Assembly: GCF_030380815.1 (NCBI RefSeq) | Contig: NZ_JAUDUY010000004.1 | Coordinates: 248,001-312,000, forward strand | DNA length: 64,000 bases | Origin: Robiginitalea aurantiaca | GTDB lineage: Bacteria > Bacteroidota > Bacteroidia > Flavobacteriales > Flavobacteriaceae | Direction of reading: 5' to 3' | Part shown: positions 9,911-63,300 of the stretch, piece after piece | Position numbering within the stretch: the stretch's first letter is position 1 | Layout: every line of letters starts with the position of its first letter | The notes under the pieces: model-generated | What the model was told of the DNA's origin: nothing | Database searches by the model: none | What the model saw: only the letters and a program-made list of their open reading frames with translations | Made by a program: the position numbers and the translations under genes

Positions 9911-10495
9911 TTAGTAATTTGTTAAGACAATTTTGTTGCGCTGAATGATTTTCCTCAAGTTGATAAGTGCATAGCGCATGCGGCCGAGAGCAGTGTTAAT
10001 ACTGACTCCAGTAGACTCGGAAATTTCCTTAAAACTCATATCCTTGTAGATACGCATAATCAGAACTTCCCGCTGATCATCAGGTAATTCATCGATCAGA
10101 ATCCCAAGATCGCTATCGATCTGATCTTTGATCATTTGCTTTTCAGCATTTAGCTTGTCATCGCCAATGACCGAAAATATATTGAAATCCTCGCTCCCCT
10201 CAAATTTGGGCATTCGCTTGTTTTTCCGAAAATAGTCAATGATCAGGTTATGGGCAATTCGCATTACCCAGGGAAGAAATTTCCCTTCTTCACTGTAGTT
10301 CCCCTTTTTCAGTGTTTTGATAACCTTAATAAAGGTATCCTGAAAAATGTCTTCCGTAACATCCCTGTCCAGAACCTTAGAATAAATAAAGCTGGTGATG
10401 CGCTGGTTGTGTCTGTTGATTAGGACCTCGAGGGCTCTTTCTTTACCACTGATGTATTCCTTTACCAGGATTGAGTCTTCGATCTGTAGTTCCAT
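9911..10495 (-). CDS. ECF-like RNA polymerase sigma-70 family factor (copy 1)
   Basis: 194 residues. Region 2 is visible in F-I-Y-S-K-V-L-D-R-D-V-T-E-D-I-F-Q-D-T-F and W-V-M-R-I-A-H-N-L-I-I-D-Y-F-R-K. Region 4 has the helix-turn-helix M-S-F-K-E-I-S-E-S-T-G-V-S-I-N-T-A-L-G. It should direct RNA polymerase to a specific promoter set. It is a close paralogue of the 11038-11619 gene, identical over long stretches of regions 2 and 4. No transmembrane anti-sigma gene follows; instead there is a 47-residue ORF. A paired 21-bp-period operator (10610-10640) lies upstream, matching those near the LytTR/histidine kinase genes at 62 kb. Confidence 0.93.
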   Translation of the reverse strand: MELQIEDSILVKEYISGKERALEVLINRHNQRITSFIYSKVLDRDVTEDIFQDTFIKVIKTLKKGNYSEEGKFLPWVMRIAHNLIIDYFRKNKRMPKFEGSEDFNIFSVIGDDKLNAEKQMIKDQIDSDLGILIDELPDDQREVLIMRIYKDMSFKEISESTGVSINTALGRMRYALINLRKIIQRNKIVLTNY

Positions 10496-10574
10496 AGTTT
10501 TTTGTTCTGTTAAGGACCTTAAGCTGGTTTTGCTTCTGATGCTGTTTTCGGTTTGCTCGGTTTCAAATACAAAC

Positions 10575-10640
10575 TAAAATTAGCACAAGGGCCTGCCCAC
10601 GAAAAAACATTGTTGTAAAACCGCCGAATCTTGATGTAAA
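10575..10640 (-). promoter_or_regulatory. Operator and -7-like element upstream of the sigma factor gene
   Basis: Two direct repeats read on the + strand: TTGTTGTAAA at 10610-10619 and TTGATGTAAA at 10631-10640, starts 21 bp apart. On the minus strand the proximal repeat is followed by exactly 27 bp and then TAATTTTA (10582 to 10575), a 7/8 match to TAnnTTTG. The 21/27 geometry equals that of the three units at 61.9-62.5 kb. An alternative 7/8 -7 match (TTAGTTTG, 10570-10577) would give a different spacing. Transcription would leave a leader of about 75 nt before the ATG at 10495. Confidence 0.55.
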
Positions 10641-59758: not shown

Positions 59759-61717
59759 TTATTTAAAATTGAACCAAAAACGAACCCCTTCAGCGGTTTT
59801 ATCGATATTCAGGTTAGATTGTAACTGATTGACCAGCCTTTTGATCAGCCGAATACCCATGGAGTTCTCGGCCCGGGTTTCCGTGTCTTCGGGAAGTCCG
59901 ACCCCGTTATCCGTATATTCAAAGAACCCGCCGTCTGTATTCTTCTGAATATGTATGTAGATCTTTCCGTTCTCGGAGGCTTCTGTAAAGGCGTATTTGA
60001 ACGAATTAGATACCAGCTCATTGAGAATCAAACCTATAGGTATGGCCCTGTCAATGTCCAGTTCAACGCCTTCAGCGTCAATAGTGATATTGATACTATG
60101 GCCTCCTTTGCGATAAACAGACTGAATGCTATTGATCAGGCTTTCGATATAGCCCTGCATTTCTATCACCGAAAGATCGTCGTTTTGATAGAGTTTCTGA
60201 TGGATCAGGGCCATGGCCTTTACACGGGTTTTGCCCTCCTCGAGGGCTTCTATGGCCGCCTTACTCCTTGTGTTTTTGGTTTGCAGGCTCAGCAGGCTCG
60301 AAACCATTTGCAGGTTGTTTTTTACCCGGTGGTGGATTTCCTTCAGCAGCGAATCCTTTTCGACCAGGGAATTTTCAATAATGCGTTTCTGTTCTGCGAT
60401 TAAGCGTTGATTCTTGATGCTTTTTAAATAGGCGTAAACCAAACCGGCAAAACCGAGGAGCGTAAAAACCAAAGAGATGAACACCAGGTTAATCCTCATG
60501 TCCTGGGCCTCCATCACTTCCCGGCCCTGCTCGAGCATCAATTCCTGTTCCTTGTTCTTTTCCTTCTCCTTTTCGAGTTCTTCACTGGCCACGATGGAAA
60601 CCAATCGCTCCTTCTGATTAAAGGCGTCCAGGGCATTAATGGAATCCTGAAGACGCATTGCATTTTTCAGGTAAATGGCTTCTCTTGAGCTGTCCCCGGT
60701 TGCTTTGTAATAATCCGCTAGTAGCCTATTGCGCCTTATGAGCAATTCCGGTTGAAAGGTATCCAGGTCCGCTGTGAGGTACTCGCGCGCCTTTCGATAG
60801 TTTTCGAGCTCCAGATAAGCAGAAGCCAGGGCGAGGGTGTTGATGGACTTCTCCTCATGGAAGGCCTCGGAAGACAGAGTACTAAGGACACCCAGGCTGT
60901 TTTCCAGATAGGGCAAAGCCTCTTCGTGCTCATTCTGAAGTATATGCGCTTTTCCGATATTTCCTTCGATAACTGCTTTTAGCAGACTTGCATTGTCTAT
61001 TTCCTCACGTGTACGTACCTGATTGATGTCGTTTACAAACACCACAATGTAACCCTGTGCCTTCTTAAAGTAAGCCATGGCTGTGGCGGAGGACTTTTCC
61101 TGCAGCAGGAACTTTCCGATCTGGTTGTTATACACCGCCAAATGATAAAAATCCGAAGAATCGATGGTTTTCTTGACCTCTTCAATATATTGTTCCATCG
61201 CCTTGCGGTGCAGGCCCAGATTGGAGTAGATGTCGTAAAAACTGATGTTATCCGAGATGCCAAATTGCAACTTTCGCTCTCTTATCTCAATTTGCTTGTC
61301 AAACTGCCTGAGTTTCCCGTAGTTTTCGTCCATCAGATCCAATAACCTCTGAAGGCTGACCTTTTCGAGGGACTCCAGTTCCGGGTACATTTCCTGAGTG
61401 AGGGATGCGGCGCGCTTGTAGTTGCCGAGATCGTAATAAATCTGAGCTCGAATAAGCTGATAGGTACGCATTGCAGTAGAGTCCTGTTGCTGGACAGCGG
61501 TATTGATATCGGAGTTGATACGGTCGAGCCAGTCGTAGGCCGAGTGATATGTATACCGATTGTCCGTCTCGAAAAAGTAGGACAATTTTTCTTCCGGGGA
61601 TTCCTTTTCAGTATACGTTTGCAGAAGGGACTCCGACGGTACGGCAAACTCCTGGGCCATTCCCATTGCGGGTAAGGCCATGCCTGCCAAATAACAAATG
61701 ATGAGTAATTTTTTCAT
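59759..61717 (-). CDS. TPR-sensor histidine kinase (HisKA_2 type)
   Basis: 652 residues. Signal peptide or first helix at 1-20 (I-I-C-Y-L-A-G-M-A-L-P-A-M-G), TPR-like helices at about 40-385, a coiled stretch with many Glu/Lys, a membrane helix near 405-428, and the HisKA_2 dimerisation helix with the phospho-accepting His in E-I-H-H-R-V-K-N-N-L-Q-M-V. The ATPase domain follows: N-box L-N-E-L-V-S-N-S-F-K-Y, G1 D-N-G-V-G-L-P and G2 S-M-G-I-R-L-I-K. The likely partner is the LytTR regulator on the same strand 824 bp upstream. Its promoter carries the half-site and 27-bp spacing of the small RNA units (see 61771). Confidence 0.92.
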   Translation of the reverse strand: MKKLLIICYLAGMALPAMGMAQEFAVPSESLLQTYTEKESPEEKLSYFFETDNRYTYHSAYDWLDRINSDINTAVQQQDSTAMRTYQLIRAQIYYDLGNYKRAASLTQEMYPELESLEKVSLQRLLDLMDENYGKLRQFDKQIEIRERKLQFGISDNISFYDIYSNLGLHRKAMEQYIEEVKKTIDSSDFYHLAVYNNQIGKFLLQEKSSATAMAYFKKAQGYIVVFVNDINQVRTREEIDNASLLKAVIEGNIGKAHILQNEHEEALPYLENSLGVLSTLSSEAFHEEKSINTLALASAYLELENYRKAREYLTADLDTFQPELLIRRNRLLADYYKATGDSSREAIYLKNAMRLQDSINALDAFNQKERLVSIVASEELEKEKEKNKEQELMLEQGREVMEAQDMRINLVFISLVFTLLGFAGLVYAYLKSIKNQRLIAEQKRIIENSLVEKDSLLKEIHHRVKNNLQMVSSLLSLQTKNTRSKAAIEALEEGKTRVKAMALIHQKLYQNDDLSVIEMQGYIESLINSIQSVYRKGGHSINITIDAEGVELDIDRAIPIGLILNELVSNSFKYAFTEASENGKIYIHIQKNTDGGFFEYTDNGVGLPEDTETRAENSMGIRLIKRLVNQLQSNLNIDKTAEGVRFWFNFK

Positions 61718-61770
61718 AAATCCGCCCTGCAGCAGTCGGATGCTATGGAGGCTGCTACATCAAGGTTGTT

Positions 61771-61836
61771 CAAACTTACCTCTAACTAACGGAAATTCGA
61801 ATCTTTTGTTGTCAAACGGGAACATTCTGTAGCCTT
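61771..61836 (-). promoter_or_regulatory. Histidine kinase promoter with operator half-site
   Basis: On the minus strand, TAAGTTTG (61778 to 61771) is an exact TAnnTTTG match. Exactly 27 bp upstream lies TTGTTGTCAA (61806-61815, + strand), one mismatch from TTGTTGTGAA. The place of the second half-site (61827-61836, CTGTAGCCTT) matches at only 4 of 10. The transcript would begin near 61766, about 50 nt before the ATG at 61717. Confidence 0.6.
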
Positions 61837-61865
61837 TAATAAGAAAGGGGAAGTCTGAGGGGTCA

Positions 61866-61940
61866 AAATAAGAAAAGGCCGTGCAAATAAATGCACAGCC
61901 TTTTCATCTACATGTAAGATTTGGGATCTTAACTAAAGAC
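61866..61940 (-). ncRNA. Candidate small RNA, unit A
   Basis: The operator and -7 element upstream predict a start near 61940. The RNA would hold a small stem (AAGAT/ATCTT) and end in a terminator hairpin at 61873-61904, about 75 nt long. It shares the layout of units B and C but not their sequence. A 14-codon ORF (61863-61907) runs through the hairpin and is probably chance. Confidence 0.55.
61873..61904 (-). terminator. Terminator of unit A
   Basis: AAAAGGC-C-GTGCA (61873-61885) pairs with TGCAC-A-GCCTTTT (61892-61904) with one mismatch. On the minus strand it is followed by CTTATTTTG, a short U-rich tail. Confidence 0.75.
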
Positions 61941-61944
61941 CCTC

Positions 61945-62010
61945 CAAAAATAGAATTTTGGATGACCCGCCCGCTGGTTTTGTTGTGTAAGCGCTCAGAA
62001 TTGTTGTGAA
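61945..62010 (-). promoter_or_regulatory. Operator and promoter of unit A
   Basis: On the + strand: TTGTTGTGTA at 61980-61989 and TTGTTGTGAA at 62001-62010, 21 bp start to start. On the minus strand the proximal repeat is followed by 27 bp and then TATTTTTG (61952 to 61945), an exact TAnnTTTG match. Confidence 0.75.
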
Positions 62011-62089
62011 ATTGGCTTTTGCGTCCCAAAGCTGCACTAAATCCAATGCTATCTGCCATTGATTTGCCAAAATTTCTACGATTGGCCGC

Positions 62090-62173
62090 AAAAGAAGAAA
62101 GAGTCTTGCCGCTTTGGCAAGACTCTTTCACGAGAACACTATATGAAAATGAAAAAATTTATCCTTAAATCCT
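62090..62173 (-). ncRNA. Candidate small RNA, unit B
   Basis: Predicted start near 62173, predicted end about 62090, about 84 nt. The 5' part is A/U-rich and single-stranded (with two AGGAT motifs), followed by a 13-bp hairpin (AAAGAGTCTTGCC) and a U-rich tail. No ATG in the minus-strand transcript. It is the direct repeat of unit C. Confidence 0.6.
62098..62128 (-). terminator. Terminator of unit B
   Basis: AAAGAGTCTTGCC and GGCAAGACTCTTT form a perfect 13-bp stem with loop GCTTT. On the minus strand the tail is CTTCTTTTG. Confidence 0.82.
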
Positions 62174-62177
62174 GAAA

Positions 62178-62243
62178 CGAATATACCCCGGATGCGGGCC
62201 GGAGCCAAGTCTTTGTTGTGAAGGGCGGAATTCTTGTTGTGAA
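62178..62243 (-). promoter_or_regulatory. Operator and promoter of unit B
   Basis: TTGTTGTGAA at 62213-62222 and again at 62234-62243 (+ strand), 21 bp start to start. On the minus strand 27 bp separate the proximal repeat from TATATTCG (62185 to 62178), one mismatch from TAnnTTTG. A TTG lies 20 bp before the -7 element. Confidence 0.72.
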
Positions 62244-62349
62244 CAAGCACGCAGTGTTGTTTTACCCCTATTTACAAACCTGTATGGAGACCTCGGAGTT
62301 CGGCTTCTGAACATTCCGCTGCTTGGACCAGGATTTTCCATACCCCCTG

Positions 62350-62433
62350 AAATCAGAAAGAGCCTTGCCGCTTTGGCAAGACTCTTTCACGAGAACACTA
62401 TATGAAAATGAAAAAAATTTATCCTTAAATCCT
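62350..62433 (-). ncRNA. Candidate small RNA, unit C
   Basis: Predicted start near 62433 and end about 62350. The body equals unit B apart from one extra A/T and a few substitutions. In the hairpin, the change relative to unit B turns an A-U pair into G-U, so the stem is kept. The tail after the stem is less U-rich than in unit B. Confidence 0.57.
62357..62387 (-). terminator. Terminator hairpin of unit C
   Basis: AAAGAGCCTTGCC and GGCAAGACTCTTT pair over 13 positions with one G-U wobble in the minus-strand RNA. The downstream tail (CTGATTTCAG) is weak in T. Confidence 0.65.
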
Positions 62434-62437
62434 GAAA

Positions 62438-62503
62438 CGAATATACCCAGGATGCAGGCCGGAGCCAAGTCTTTGTTGTGAAGGGTGGAATTCTTGTTGT
62501 AAA
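62438..62503 (-). promoter_or_regulatory. Operator and promoter of unit C
   Basis: TTGTTGTGAA at 62473-62482 and TTGTTGTAAA at 62494-62503 (+ strand), 21 bp start to start. On the minus strand 27 bp separate the proximal repeat from TATATTCG (62445 to 62438). A degenerate third half (CTGTTAGTCC) occurs at 62514. Confidence 0.72.
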
Positions 62504-62541
62504 AGTGGAAATCCTGTTAGTCCGCGCTGTTTATGCAGGTC

Positions 62542-63300
62542 TTAAGAATTCATGGCCGAGATAATAAACTCCTTAAAATCTTTAGAGATCGGGATAAGCG
62601 TCCCGTTGATCAGGATATCTCTGGTATTGATGCCATCGATATGGTCTACATTTACTATGTACGATTTATGCGCCCTGTAGAATTTATTCCTTGGCAATTT
62701 CTCAAGGTACGTTTTCAGCGGAGAGCGTACCAAAAACTTTTTGTCTTTTGTATTGACCTCCAAATAGACGTTATCCGCCTTGATATAATGGATGTCATCA
62801 AAATAAATCCTGTAATACAAATGCTGCTTCTTGACAAAGATGGAATCCTTTAAAACGGAATTGGACGTAAATCCTTCTCCTTCGACCTCATCTCCGGTGT
62901 CGGCACTCCTGGATTTTTTTCCCGGCTCAAAATTAGAAAGTGCGATTTCTATGGAAGTGTACAGATCCTGCTGCTCAAAAGGCTTTACCAAATACCCATT
63001 CGGCTGAACGGTCTTGGCGTTTTCCACCGTAGCCCGGTCCGAGTTTGAGGTGACGAAAATAAATGGGATGTCGTAGGCTTCGCGAATGTGCTTCCCGAGA
63101 TCTATACCCGTTTTATCCGAAGCAAGGATAATATCTATCAGCACCAGGTCTACCTGGTTATTTTTAAGGACCTCCACTGCCTGTTCGTAGACGATGACGT
63201 TATCGACAATCTCATAACCAATCTCCTCCAGCATGGACTGCATATCGTCGGCGATAATCACATTGTCCTCAACAATTAATATTTTGATAGGTTCTTCCAA
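62542..63300 (-). CDS. LytTR-family response regulator
   Basis: 252 residues. The receiver domain (about 5-125) holds the acidic pocket E-D-N, the phospho-acceptor Asp in L-V-L-I-D-I (about residue 55), T in F-V-T-S-N-S and K in Y-L-V-K-P-F. The LytTR DNA-binding domain (about 150-250) has F-V-K-K, D-D-I-H-Y-I-K-A, F-L-V-R-S-P-L-K-T and F-Y-R-A-H-K-S-Y-I-V-N. LytTR proteins typically bind pairs of about 9-10-bp direct repeats roughly two helical turns apart, as found in the adjacent array. It lies 33 bp downstream of menA; the kinase at 59759 is the likely partner. Confidence 0.94.
   Translation of the reverse strand: MEEPIKILIVEDNVIIADDMQSMLEEIGYEIVDNVIVYEQAVEVLKNNQVDLVLIDIILASDKTGIDLGKHIREAYDIPFIFVTSNSDRATVENAKTVQPNGYLVKPFEQQDLYTSIEIALSNFEPGKKSRSADTGDEVEGEGFTSNSVLKDSIFVKKQHLYYRIYFDDIHYIKADNVYLEVNTKDKKFLVRSPLKTYLEKLPRNKFYRAHKSYIVNVDHIDGINTRDILINGTLIPISKDFKEFIISAMNS

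What the first reader, a model, noticed from the sequence alone, without database searches (positions are those of the whole stretch)
61866..62503. Three tandem small-RNA-like units under a paired operator, between a LytTR regulator and a histidine kinase
Seen: on the minus strand, three units share an exact layout: two 10-bp direct repeats (TTGTTGTGAA-type) 21 bp apart, exactly 27 bp, a -7-like element (TATTTTTG or TATATTCG), then about 75-85 nt with no convincing ORF, ending in a hairpin. Two units are near-identical 148-149-bp direct repeats; the third differs in sequence but keeps the geometry. Known: LytTR regulators bind direct repeats about two helical turns apart, upstream of promoters. 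Inference: the units are tandem small RNA genes activated by the adjacent LytTR protein, similar in logic to multi-copy sRNA systems such as Qrr or csRNAs. I know of no named family matching them.
Basis: partly seen in the sequence, partly recalled or inferred. Interest (0 to 1): 0.88.

Follow-up and report, generated by a model that had tools for sequence, protein, structure and literature searches.

The report
LytTR-linked tandem small RNAs, flavobacteria
Between a two-component kinase and its regulator in a marine flavobacterium lie three predicted small-RNA genes of two kinds, each behind the same paired operator; one kind matches the start codons of lipoprotein mRNAs and the other matches a separate small-RNA array, which points to an undescribed RNA regulatory circuit.

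Summary
Observation confirmed, and conserved. Three minus-strand units between a LytTR response regulator (RR) and a TPR/HisKA_2 kinase (HK) each have TTCACAACAA-N11-TTCACAACAA, 27 bp, a TAnnTTnG -7 box, a ~75-87 nt ORF-less RNA and a terminator. The HK promoter has the same layout, with a poor distal half. Among 164 distinct units from relatives the 27-bp spacer is exact in 159.

Two RNA classes. Type 1 (A, B, and a copy 144 kb away): near-frozen core, covarying terminator. In 149 genomes the core (0-1 mismatch) occurs in 20 of 20 with the close RR and 1 of 129 others, a 74% complete draft. 18 nt of core are exactly complementary to two lipoprotein start codons here; one, a CAP-domain lipoprotein, keeps the site in several other genera. 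Type 2 (C) is complementary over 10-15 nt, in 7 of 9 Robiginitalea genomes tested, to a separate tandem RNA array (type 3).

Best reading: RR-activated multicopy sRNAs; type 1 represses lipoproteins at the start codon, type 2 titrates type 3. Works like LhrC, csRNA, FopS; a member of none tested. No Rfam match; no Hfq found in the genus. Transcription and RR binding are untested.

The parts
62542..63300 (-). Response regulator with receiver and LytTR DNA-binding domain; candidate activator of the units
   Evidence: Pfam Response_reg 1.6e-20, LytTR 4.2e-18; orthologs in 9 of 10 genus genomes
62473..62503 (-). Unit A paired operator (TTTACAACAA-N11-TTCACAACAA)
62438..62445 (-). Unit A -7 box TATATTCG, exactly 27 bp from the operator
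62350..62436 (-). Unit A predicted type 1 small RNA (ends approximate)
62393..62410 (-). Type 1 core CAUUUUCAUAUAGUGUUC, complementary to lipoprotein start codons
62356..62388 (-). Unit A terminator hairpin
62213..62243 (-). Unit B paired operator (exact TTCACAACAA twice)
62178..62185 (-). Unit B -7 box TATATTCG
62090..62176 (-). Unit B predicted type 1 small RNA (core 62134-62151, hairpin 62097-62129)
61980..62010 (-). Unit C paired operator
61945..61952 (-). Unit C -7 box TATTTTTG
61865..61941 (-). Unit C predicted type 2 small RNA: UAAGAU-CCCAA-AUCUUA hairpin, terminator 61873-61905
61914..61925 (-). Type 2 core CCCAAAUCUUAC, complementary to the type 3 RNAs
61771..61815 (-). HK promoter with the same layout: TTGACAACAA, 27 bp, TAAGTTTG
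   Evidence: an HK-promoter unit was found in 11 of 19 RR-HK loci
59759..61717 (-). Histidine kinase: signal-peptide-like N-terminus (by eye), TPRs, HisKA_2 and HATPase_c
   Evidence: Pfam HisKA_2 6.6e-27, TPR_12, HATPase_c

Best explanation
The three units are trans-acting small RNA genes of a two-component regulon. The phosphorylated LytTR regulator binds the paired 10-bp repeats and activates the -7 promoters of the sRNAs and of the kinase gene. Type 1 RNA (units A, B and a distant copy) exposes a single-stranded U-rich core that base-pairs with the 5' leader and start codon of envelope lipoprotein mRNAs, above all a CAP-domain lipoprotein, and blocks translation initiation. Type 2 RNA (unit C) offers a CCCAA loop plus AUCUUAC that pairs with the exposed GUAAGAUUUGGG of three tandem type 3 RNAs made elsewhere, and so titrates them. 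Shown by sequence: geometry, conservation, terminators, complementarity, co-occurrence with the RR. Inferred: transcription, RR binding and activation, repression, titration, and the signal (envelope state).
For: Spacer exactly 27 in 159 of 164 distinct units; 47 operator/-7 units in 19 RR-HK intervals against 8 in 380,142 strand-bases of 60 other loci, two of which (L291, L295) are RR loci with real units. Core (0-1 mismatch) in 20 of 20 close-RR genomes and 1 of 129 others. Terminator stems: 11 of 14 and 8 of 10 pairs with double compensatory changes. Exact 18-nt complements on the start codons of two lipoproteins in this genome; reversed-pattern control 0 in 10 genomes. CAP site within 3 mismatches and registered on the ATG in 13 of 20 orthologs. 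Duplex type 1 x CAP -32.2 and x second lipoprotein -32.3 kcal/mol, 0 of 300 shuffles each as low; controls type 1 x type 2 (223 of 300), type 1 x type 3 (84 of 300), type 2 x CAP (153 of 300) unremarkable. Type 3 array found through its complement to type 2; type 2 x type 3 as low in 3, 0 and 0 of 300 shuffles. AgrA, a LytTR regulator, binds direct repeats upstream of the RNAIII promoter (passages of PMC4227749).
Against: No expression or binding data. The CAP site has decayed in G001, G003, G005, G006, G046, G059 and G065 (4 to 8 mismatches), and G066 has RR and core but no CAP match. Type 2 has a mismatch to type 3 in G002 and G007, leaving 7 contiguous nt, and no compensating change was seen. 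Five of 15 non-sRNA site matches lie on no convincing lipoprotein start. In 14 other genera the shorter 16-mer complement with one mismatch gave 41 matches but also 10 reversed-pattern controls; of the 30 loci read there, one was a CAP start and the rest sRNA genes, so targets beyond CAP were not found outside the genus. Of 42 changes in the 5' part of the CAP site, 20 are wobble-compatible: weak support. Six genomes with more distant RRs (41-73% identity) lack the core, although G086 and G039 keep operator units.
Confidence: 0.72

Rival explanations
1. The units are cis elements: serial terminators or attenuators that set read-through from the RR gene into the HK gene, without a trans role.
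For: All units lie on the same strand as RR and HK and end in terminators just before the HK gene.
Against: A third type 1 copy with its own operator half site and terminator lies 144 kb away beside an enoyl-CoA hydratase-family gene; relatives have 2-4 copies, many away from the RR; HK has its own promoter layout; the core, not only the terminator, is conserved.
Confidence: 0.07
2. The units encode very small peptides.
For: Short transcripts next to a two-component system can be peptide genes.
Against: Longest closed ATG ORF is 7 aa in 144 type 1 units and 10 aa in 20 type 2 units; 127 of 144 type 1 RNAs contain no ATG (GTG and TTG starts not counted); conservation is of nucleotides.
Confidence: 0.03
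3. They are sRNAs, but another regulator drives them; the LytTR neighbour is incidental.
For: No binding data; operator units persist near divergent RRs.
Against: 20 of 20 co-occurrence of core and close RR; operators sit in the RR-HK interval and at the HK promoter; paired direct repeats are the known target form of the LytTR protein AgrA.
Confidence: 0.15
4. Type 2 does not titrate type 3; instead type 3 controls type 2, or both act on shared mRNAs such as the CAP leader, which carries C-rich loops and CCUACUU sites.
For: CAP leaders are enriched for type 3 complements (CCTRCTTR, 18 occurrences in 14 of 20 leaders against 0.29 per shuffle); type 3 x CAP duplexes are moderately favourable (27 and 8 of 300 shuffles as low).
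Against: In every one of ten genus genomes the type 3 array is among the exact 11-nt complements of type 2; other, longer complements with mismatches were not searched for.
Confidence: 0.4

Closest known systems
LhrC family of Listeria (LisRK two-component system)
   Same: Multicopy sRNAs whose expression needs a two-component system; LhrC binds lapB mRNA and impedes its translation (abstract of PMC4132741; passages of PMC7602753)
   Different: LisR is an OmpR-type regulator (recalled); LhrC pairs through CU-rich sites; one RNA family; sequences not compared
FopS and GibS sRNAs of Bacteroides (RbpB-associated)
   Same: Multicopy Bacteroidota sRNAs, single-stranded 5' seed then terminator, pairing near start codons of surface proteins (passages of PMC11697453)
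   Different: Canonical sigma-ABfr promoters, with no two-component operator reported in the passages read; SusC targets; sequences not compared directly
AgrA-RNAIII and VirR-VR-RNA
   Same: AgrA, a LytTR regulator, binds direct repeats upstream of the P3 promoter that makes RNAIII (passages of PMC4227749); VR-RNA belongs to the VirS/VirR regulon. That VirR has a LytTR-like domain is recalled.
   Different: Larger RNAs (VR-RNA is 386 nt), Firmicutes; absence of tandem arrays there is recalled
Qrr and csRNA systems
   Same: Several homologous sRNAs under one response regulator; five csRNAs under CiaRH inhibit comC translation (passages of PMC7602753). Qrr is recalled.
   Different: Different regulators and hosts; Qrr uses Hfq (recalled), which was not found in this genus
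Rfp18 of Flavobacterium psychrophilum
   Same: sRNA in the same family with an effect on metalloprotease mRNAs (abstract and passages of PMC9723704)
   Different: Described as strongly folded and pairing by its third stem-loop, unlike the single-stranded core here; sequences were not compared

Membership tests
Two-component-regulated multicopy sRNAs (functional class) | Several homologous short non-coding RNAs, each with own promoter and terminator | tested here: met
   2-4 strong copies in each of 13 genomes of 395; terminators in 129 of 133 core matches; an operator half of at least 8/10 in 126 of 133; covariation. Transcription itself not shown
Two-component-regulated multicopy sRNAs (functional class) | Expression depends on the response regulator | not testable with these tools
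   Only indirect: operator and co-occurrence
LytTR-domain response regulators | Receiver plus LytTR DNA-binding domain | tested here: met
   Pfam
LytTR-domain response regulators | Binding to paired direct repeats upstream of the promoter | tested here: inconclusive
   Direct repeats with a 21-bp period are present and conserved; binding not tested
Any Rfam 15 family (FopS, Qrr, LhrC and others if held) | Match to the covariance model | tested here: not met
   0 matches at gathering in the window, 0 up to E 1 in 61700-62560, 0 at gathering for L317-L319 and L154; I did not check which of these families the library holds
Hfq-dependent sRNAs | Hfq encoded in the genome | tested here: not met
   PF17209 in 0 of 10 genus genomes; the same search rings in 5 of 14 control genomes, E. 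coli among them
sRNA sponges (functional class) | Base-pairing with another sRNA that lowers its activity | tested here: inconclusive
   Complementarity 10-15 nt in 7 of 9 genomes, interrupted in 2; activity untested

The most novel reading that the evidence does not exclude
One two-component system makes two functionally distinct RNAs from the same operator design: a start-codon antisense RNA against lipoprotein mRNAs and a decoy against a second, independently controlled tandem sRNA array that pairs with the same CAP leader. The CAP mRNA leader would be a hub read by two sRNA families, in a lineage without Hfq, with fused type 1/type 2 RNAs in some relatives as evolutionary intermediates.
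Probability: 0.4. Interest if true: 0.87.

Novelty: new variant of a known kind. Interest (0 to 1): 0.76.

Why it matters
Post-transcriptional control in Flavobacteriaceae, a major marine family, is little charted, and Hfq was not found in this genus. If true, this gives a conserved sRNA regulon with a named candidate regulator, an operator with near-invariant geometry, predicted targets with exact sites, and a second RNA array linked by complementarity. It would make the question of how base-pairing sRNAs work in Bacteroidota without Hfq testable in a cultivated genus.

Tried and rejected
Rfam at gathering and at E up to 1: nothing. Plasmid collection: no match for the interval. First type 2 target search with four G's: 7 weak hits against 4 control hits, discarded; the window's own core has three C's. 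R1 hits of 47 bits or less, in 34 genomes without a strong hit and many families, treated as chance. The 'target' labels printed are short spurious ORFs, not targets. Wobble test on the CAP site: suggestive only. Literature: nine searches listed nothing that I recognised as these RNAs; I read abstracts or passages of five papers only, and the library lacks most subscription papers and all preprints. The attenuator and peptide readings were rejected for the reasons given under rivals.

Rows dropped: of 36 diverse type 1 units picked (with A and B) went into alignment A1; among the 11 left out, three (the first L098 unit, L148, L162) depart from the 24-nt run that A1 shows as invariant. Alignment A2 used 19 of 20 type 2 units (L168 left out), and its L022 row holds a one-base typing slip at the unpaired 5' end, found; the model R2 built on A2 was never used in a search. 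The interval scan took 19 of 26 RR loci (L026, L029 and L030-L034 left out: no HK seen, or not oriented by my script).

Full report
WHAT IS THERE. The window lies in a genome of the genus Robiginitalea: its handle shares genus g1 with G005, whose contig C8 of 774,286 bases matches in length the R. sediminis record NZ_NGNR01000002.1 (an inference from contig length and shared handle). On the minus strand lie a UbiA-family gene, the LytTR response regulator (RR), three units A, B and C, and a TPR/HisKA_2 histidine kinase (HK). Each unit has two 10-bp repeats with a 21-bp period, 27 bp, a Bacteroidetes-type -7 box (recalled consensus TAnnTTTG), an RNA without ORF and a hairpin terminator (coordinates checked). 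Markov versions of the window never gave the combination (0 in 100; 3 observed). The HK promoter repeats the layout with TTGACAACAA, 27 bp, TAAGTTTG, although its distal half is poor in the window (4 of 10 matches).

CONSERVATION. RR orthologs were found in 9 of 10 genus genomes (the miss is a 74% complete draft) and, at E up to 1e-50, in 26 of 149 genomes, own included (at most 18 candidates per genome were scored, so weaker relatives may be missed). In 19 of the 26 RR loci the RR-HK interval could be scanned by script and held 47 operator/-7 units: 19 with a type 1 core, 11 with a type 2 core, 1 with both fused, 11 HK-promoter units, 5 other (the spacer was allowed to be 26-28 and was 27 in 41, 28 in 6). 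In 164 distinct units gathered from the held loci by core pattern (144 type 1, 20 type 2), with a permitted range of 25 to 32, the spacer was 27 in 159, 28 in 4, 25 in 1. L026 (G059) shows no HK and no units in the 1.5 kb held behind the RR, but its genome has three type 1 genes elsewhere.

TYPE 1 RNA. Of 133 matches in those stretches 129 have a terminator by my finder and 126 an operator half of at least 8/10 within 60-120 nt upstream. In an alignment of 27 units the run TTTTCATTTTCATATAGTGTTCTC is invariant; units were found by part of this core, and 11 of 36 picked units were left out, three of which depart from the run, so 'near-frozen' is the fair word. The terminator stem has 11 of 14 pairs with double compensatory changes. 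A covariance model gave strong hits (66 bits or more) in 13 of 395 genomes of the order, all in the same family, 2-4 copies each; 34 more genomes had only hits of 47 bits or less. In the same 149 genomes the core with 0-1 mismatch occurs in 21 and the close RR (E up to 2.4e-117) in 20; all 20 have the core, and the only core-bearing genome without the RR is the 74% complete G006. Five genomes of other families had a 2-mismatch match only, which I take for chance; the reversed control gave one match in all 149. The own genome has a third copy at C44:165975, convergent with an enoyl-CoA hydratase-family gene.

TARGETS OF TYPE 1. The other two core matches in the own genome (1 and 3 mismatches over 22 nt, none over the 18 nt GAACACTATATGAAAATG) are on the complementary strand at start codons: a 158-aa CAP-domain lipoprotein (Pfam CAP 1e-10) and a 216-aa lipoprotein without a Pfam match. 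The lipoprotein calls rest on recalled lipobox features. In ten genus genomes the 18-mer with up to 2 mismatches gave 36 matches and none for the reversed pattern. I read 21 as sRNA genes (terminator after the core in each; two in G008 lie at contig ends and may be one gene; in one, in G006, no operator half reaches 8/10) and 15 as other places: 6 CAP starts, 2 starts of the 216-aa protein, 2 leaders of a third lipoprotein (an upstream ATG, probably not the true start), and 5 unclear. G009 shows only one type 1 gene. In 14 relatives from other genera a 16-mer with up to 1 mismatch gave 41 matches against 10 for the reversed control; 30 loci were read and one, in G020, is the CAP start, the rest sRNA genes. 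The CAP ortholog at E up to 2.1e-47 exists in 20 of 149 genomes: 19 of the 20 close-RR genomes (not G066) plus G006; 44 more genomes have weaker homologs. The site, registered on the start codon, has 0 mismatches in 3 orthologs, 1 in 3, 2 in 4, 3 in 3, 4 in 1, 5 in 2, 6 in 3 and 8 in 1; ten of the 44 weaker homologs were read and had 6-9 mismatches and no registered site. Duplex energies were -32.2 and -32.3 kcal/mol, with 0 of 300 dinucleotide shuffles as low for each.

TYPE 2 AND TYPE 3. Type 2 has a hairpin with a CCCAA loop followed by a covarying terminator (8 of 10 pairs compensated). Searching ten genus genomes for its complement TAAGATTTGGG gave 66 matches against 6 for the reversed pattern, and among them, in nine genomes, three matches in a row, 184-225 and 202-243 bp apart; in G003 two lie at a contig end. 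These are predicted tandem RNA genes (type 3, 29 copies read): a TAnnTT box, then CCAUAGCAUAAGUAGGUUAAGUUCAUGGUAAGAUUUGGG or a close variant and a terminator, with GUAAGAUUUGGG largely unpaired in two of three folds; in the own genome they lie next to an iron/manganese superoxide dismutase gene. I saw no TTCACAACAA operator in the type 3 upstream sequence printed. Perfect complementarity of type 2 to type 3 is 10-15 nt in 7 of 9 genomes; in G002 and G007 a mismatch leaves 7 nt (G006 was not in that test). Type 2 x type 3 was as low in 3, 0 and 0 of 300 shuffles for the three copies. CAP leaders (20) are enriched in type 3 complements (CCTRCTTR: 18 occurrences in 14 leaders, 0.29 per shuffle), in CCCCA (18 in 15, 5.0 per shuffle), in GAACAC (20 in 15, 0.64) and in ACGAGAA (9 in 8, 0.23); three control words gave 0. 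The leaders are homologous, so these counts are not independent.

MECHANISM. Paired direct repeats upstream of suboptimally spaced promoters are the known target form of the LytTR regulator AgrA, which activates the regulatory RNA RNAIII (passages of PMC4227749). I infer that the RR activates the units and HK. Pairing over the start codon implies block of initiation, as shown for FopS near start codons in Bacteroides (passages of PMC11697453) and for LhrC on lapB (abstract of PMC4132741). No Hfq was found in the genus (0 of 10). The signal is unknown; the kinase has TPRs between a signal-peptide-like start and the HisKA_2 domain (the signal-peptide reading is by eye), so an envelope cue is a guess.

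NOVELTY. As a kind, two-component-controlled multicopy sRNAs are known. This family, the regulator/operator combination, the two-class array and the link to a second RNA array were not found in Rfam 15 or in nine literature searches (listed under tried and rejected). I therefore rate it a new variant of a known kind, with a more novel reading (a decoy plus antisense pair from one regulon) that the data allow but do not show.

Noticed in passing
window 9911-10640, minus strand: A sigma-70 family (ECF-like) gene at 9911-10495 is preceded by TTTACATCAA-N11-TTTACAACAA, 27 bp, TAATTTTA: a possible further regulon member.
   Followed up: partly
L317, G000:C33:144900-145400: Conserved tandem array of type 3 RNA genes next to a superoxide dismutase gene, three copies in nine of ten Robiginitalea genomes and two seen in G003.
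   Followed up: yes
L020, L098, L028: RNAs that fuse the type 2 core (CCCAAAUCUU or CCUCAAAUCUU) directly to the type 1 core, possible evolutionary intermediates.
   Followed up: no
L008, G000:C33:554763: Operator pair with 27 bp and TAATTTGG upstream of a small ORF beginning MNYKVKSLIYLF.
   Followed up: no
L327, G000:C11:295497: A stretch behind an open frame that by eye looks like a membrane protease gene matches the complement of type 3 over about 35 nt with a gap and wobble pairs.
   Followed up: no
L328, L296, L305, L315: CCCAAATCTTA a few bases upstream of an ATG in single genomes: possible type 3 targets.
   Followed up: no
L317-L322 upstream of the first type 3 unit; L011, L018, L020, L022: Recurring palindrome-like element (ATCGATGAAATGCAC with its inverse, or one arm of it) near these RNA genes; role unknown.
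   Followed up: no
L029 (G086): A genus with a more distant RR keeps operator units; two to three of their RNAs resemble type 2 and none shows the type 1 core.
   Followed up: no
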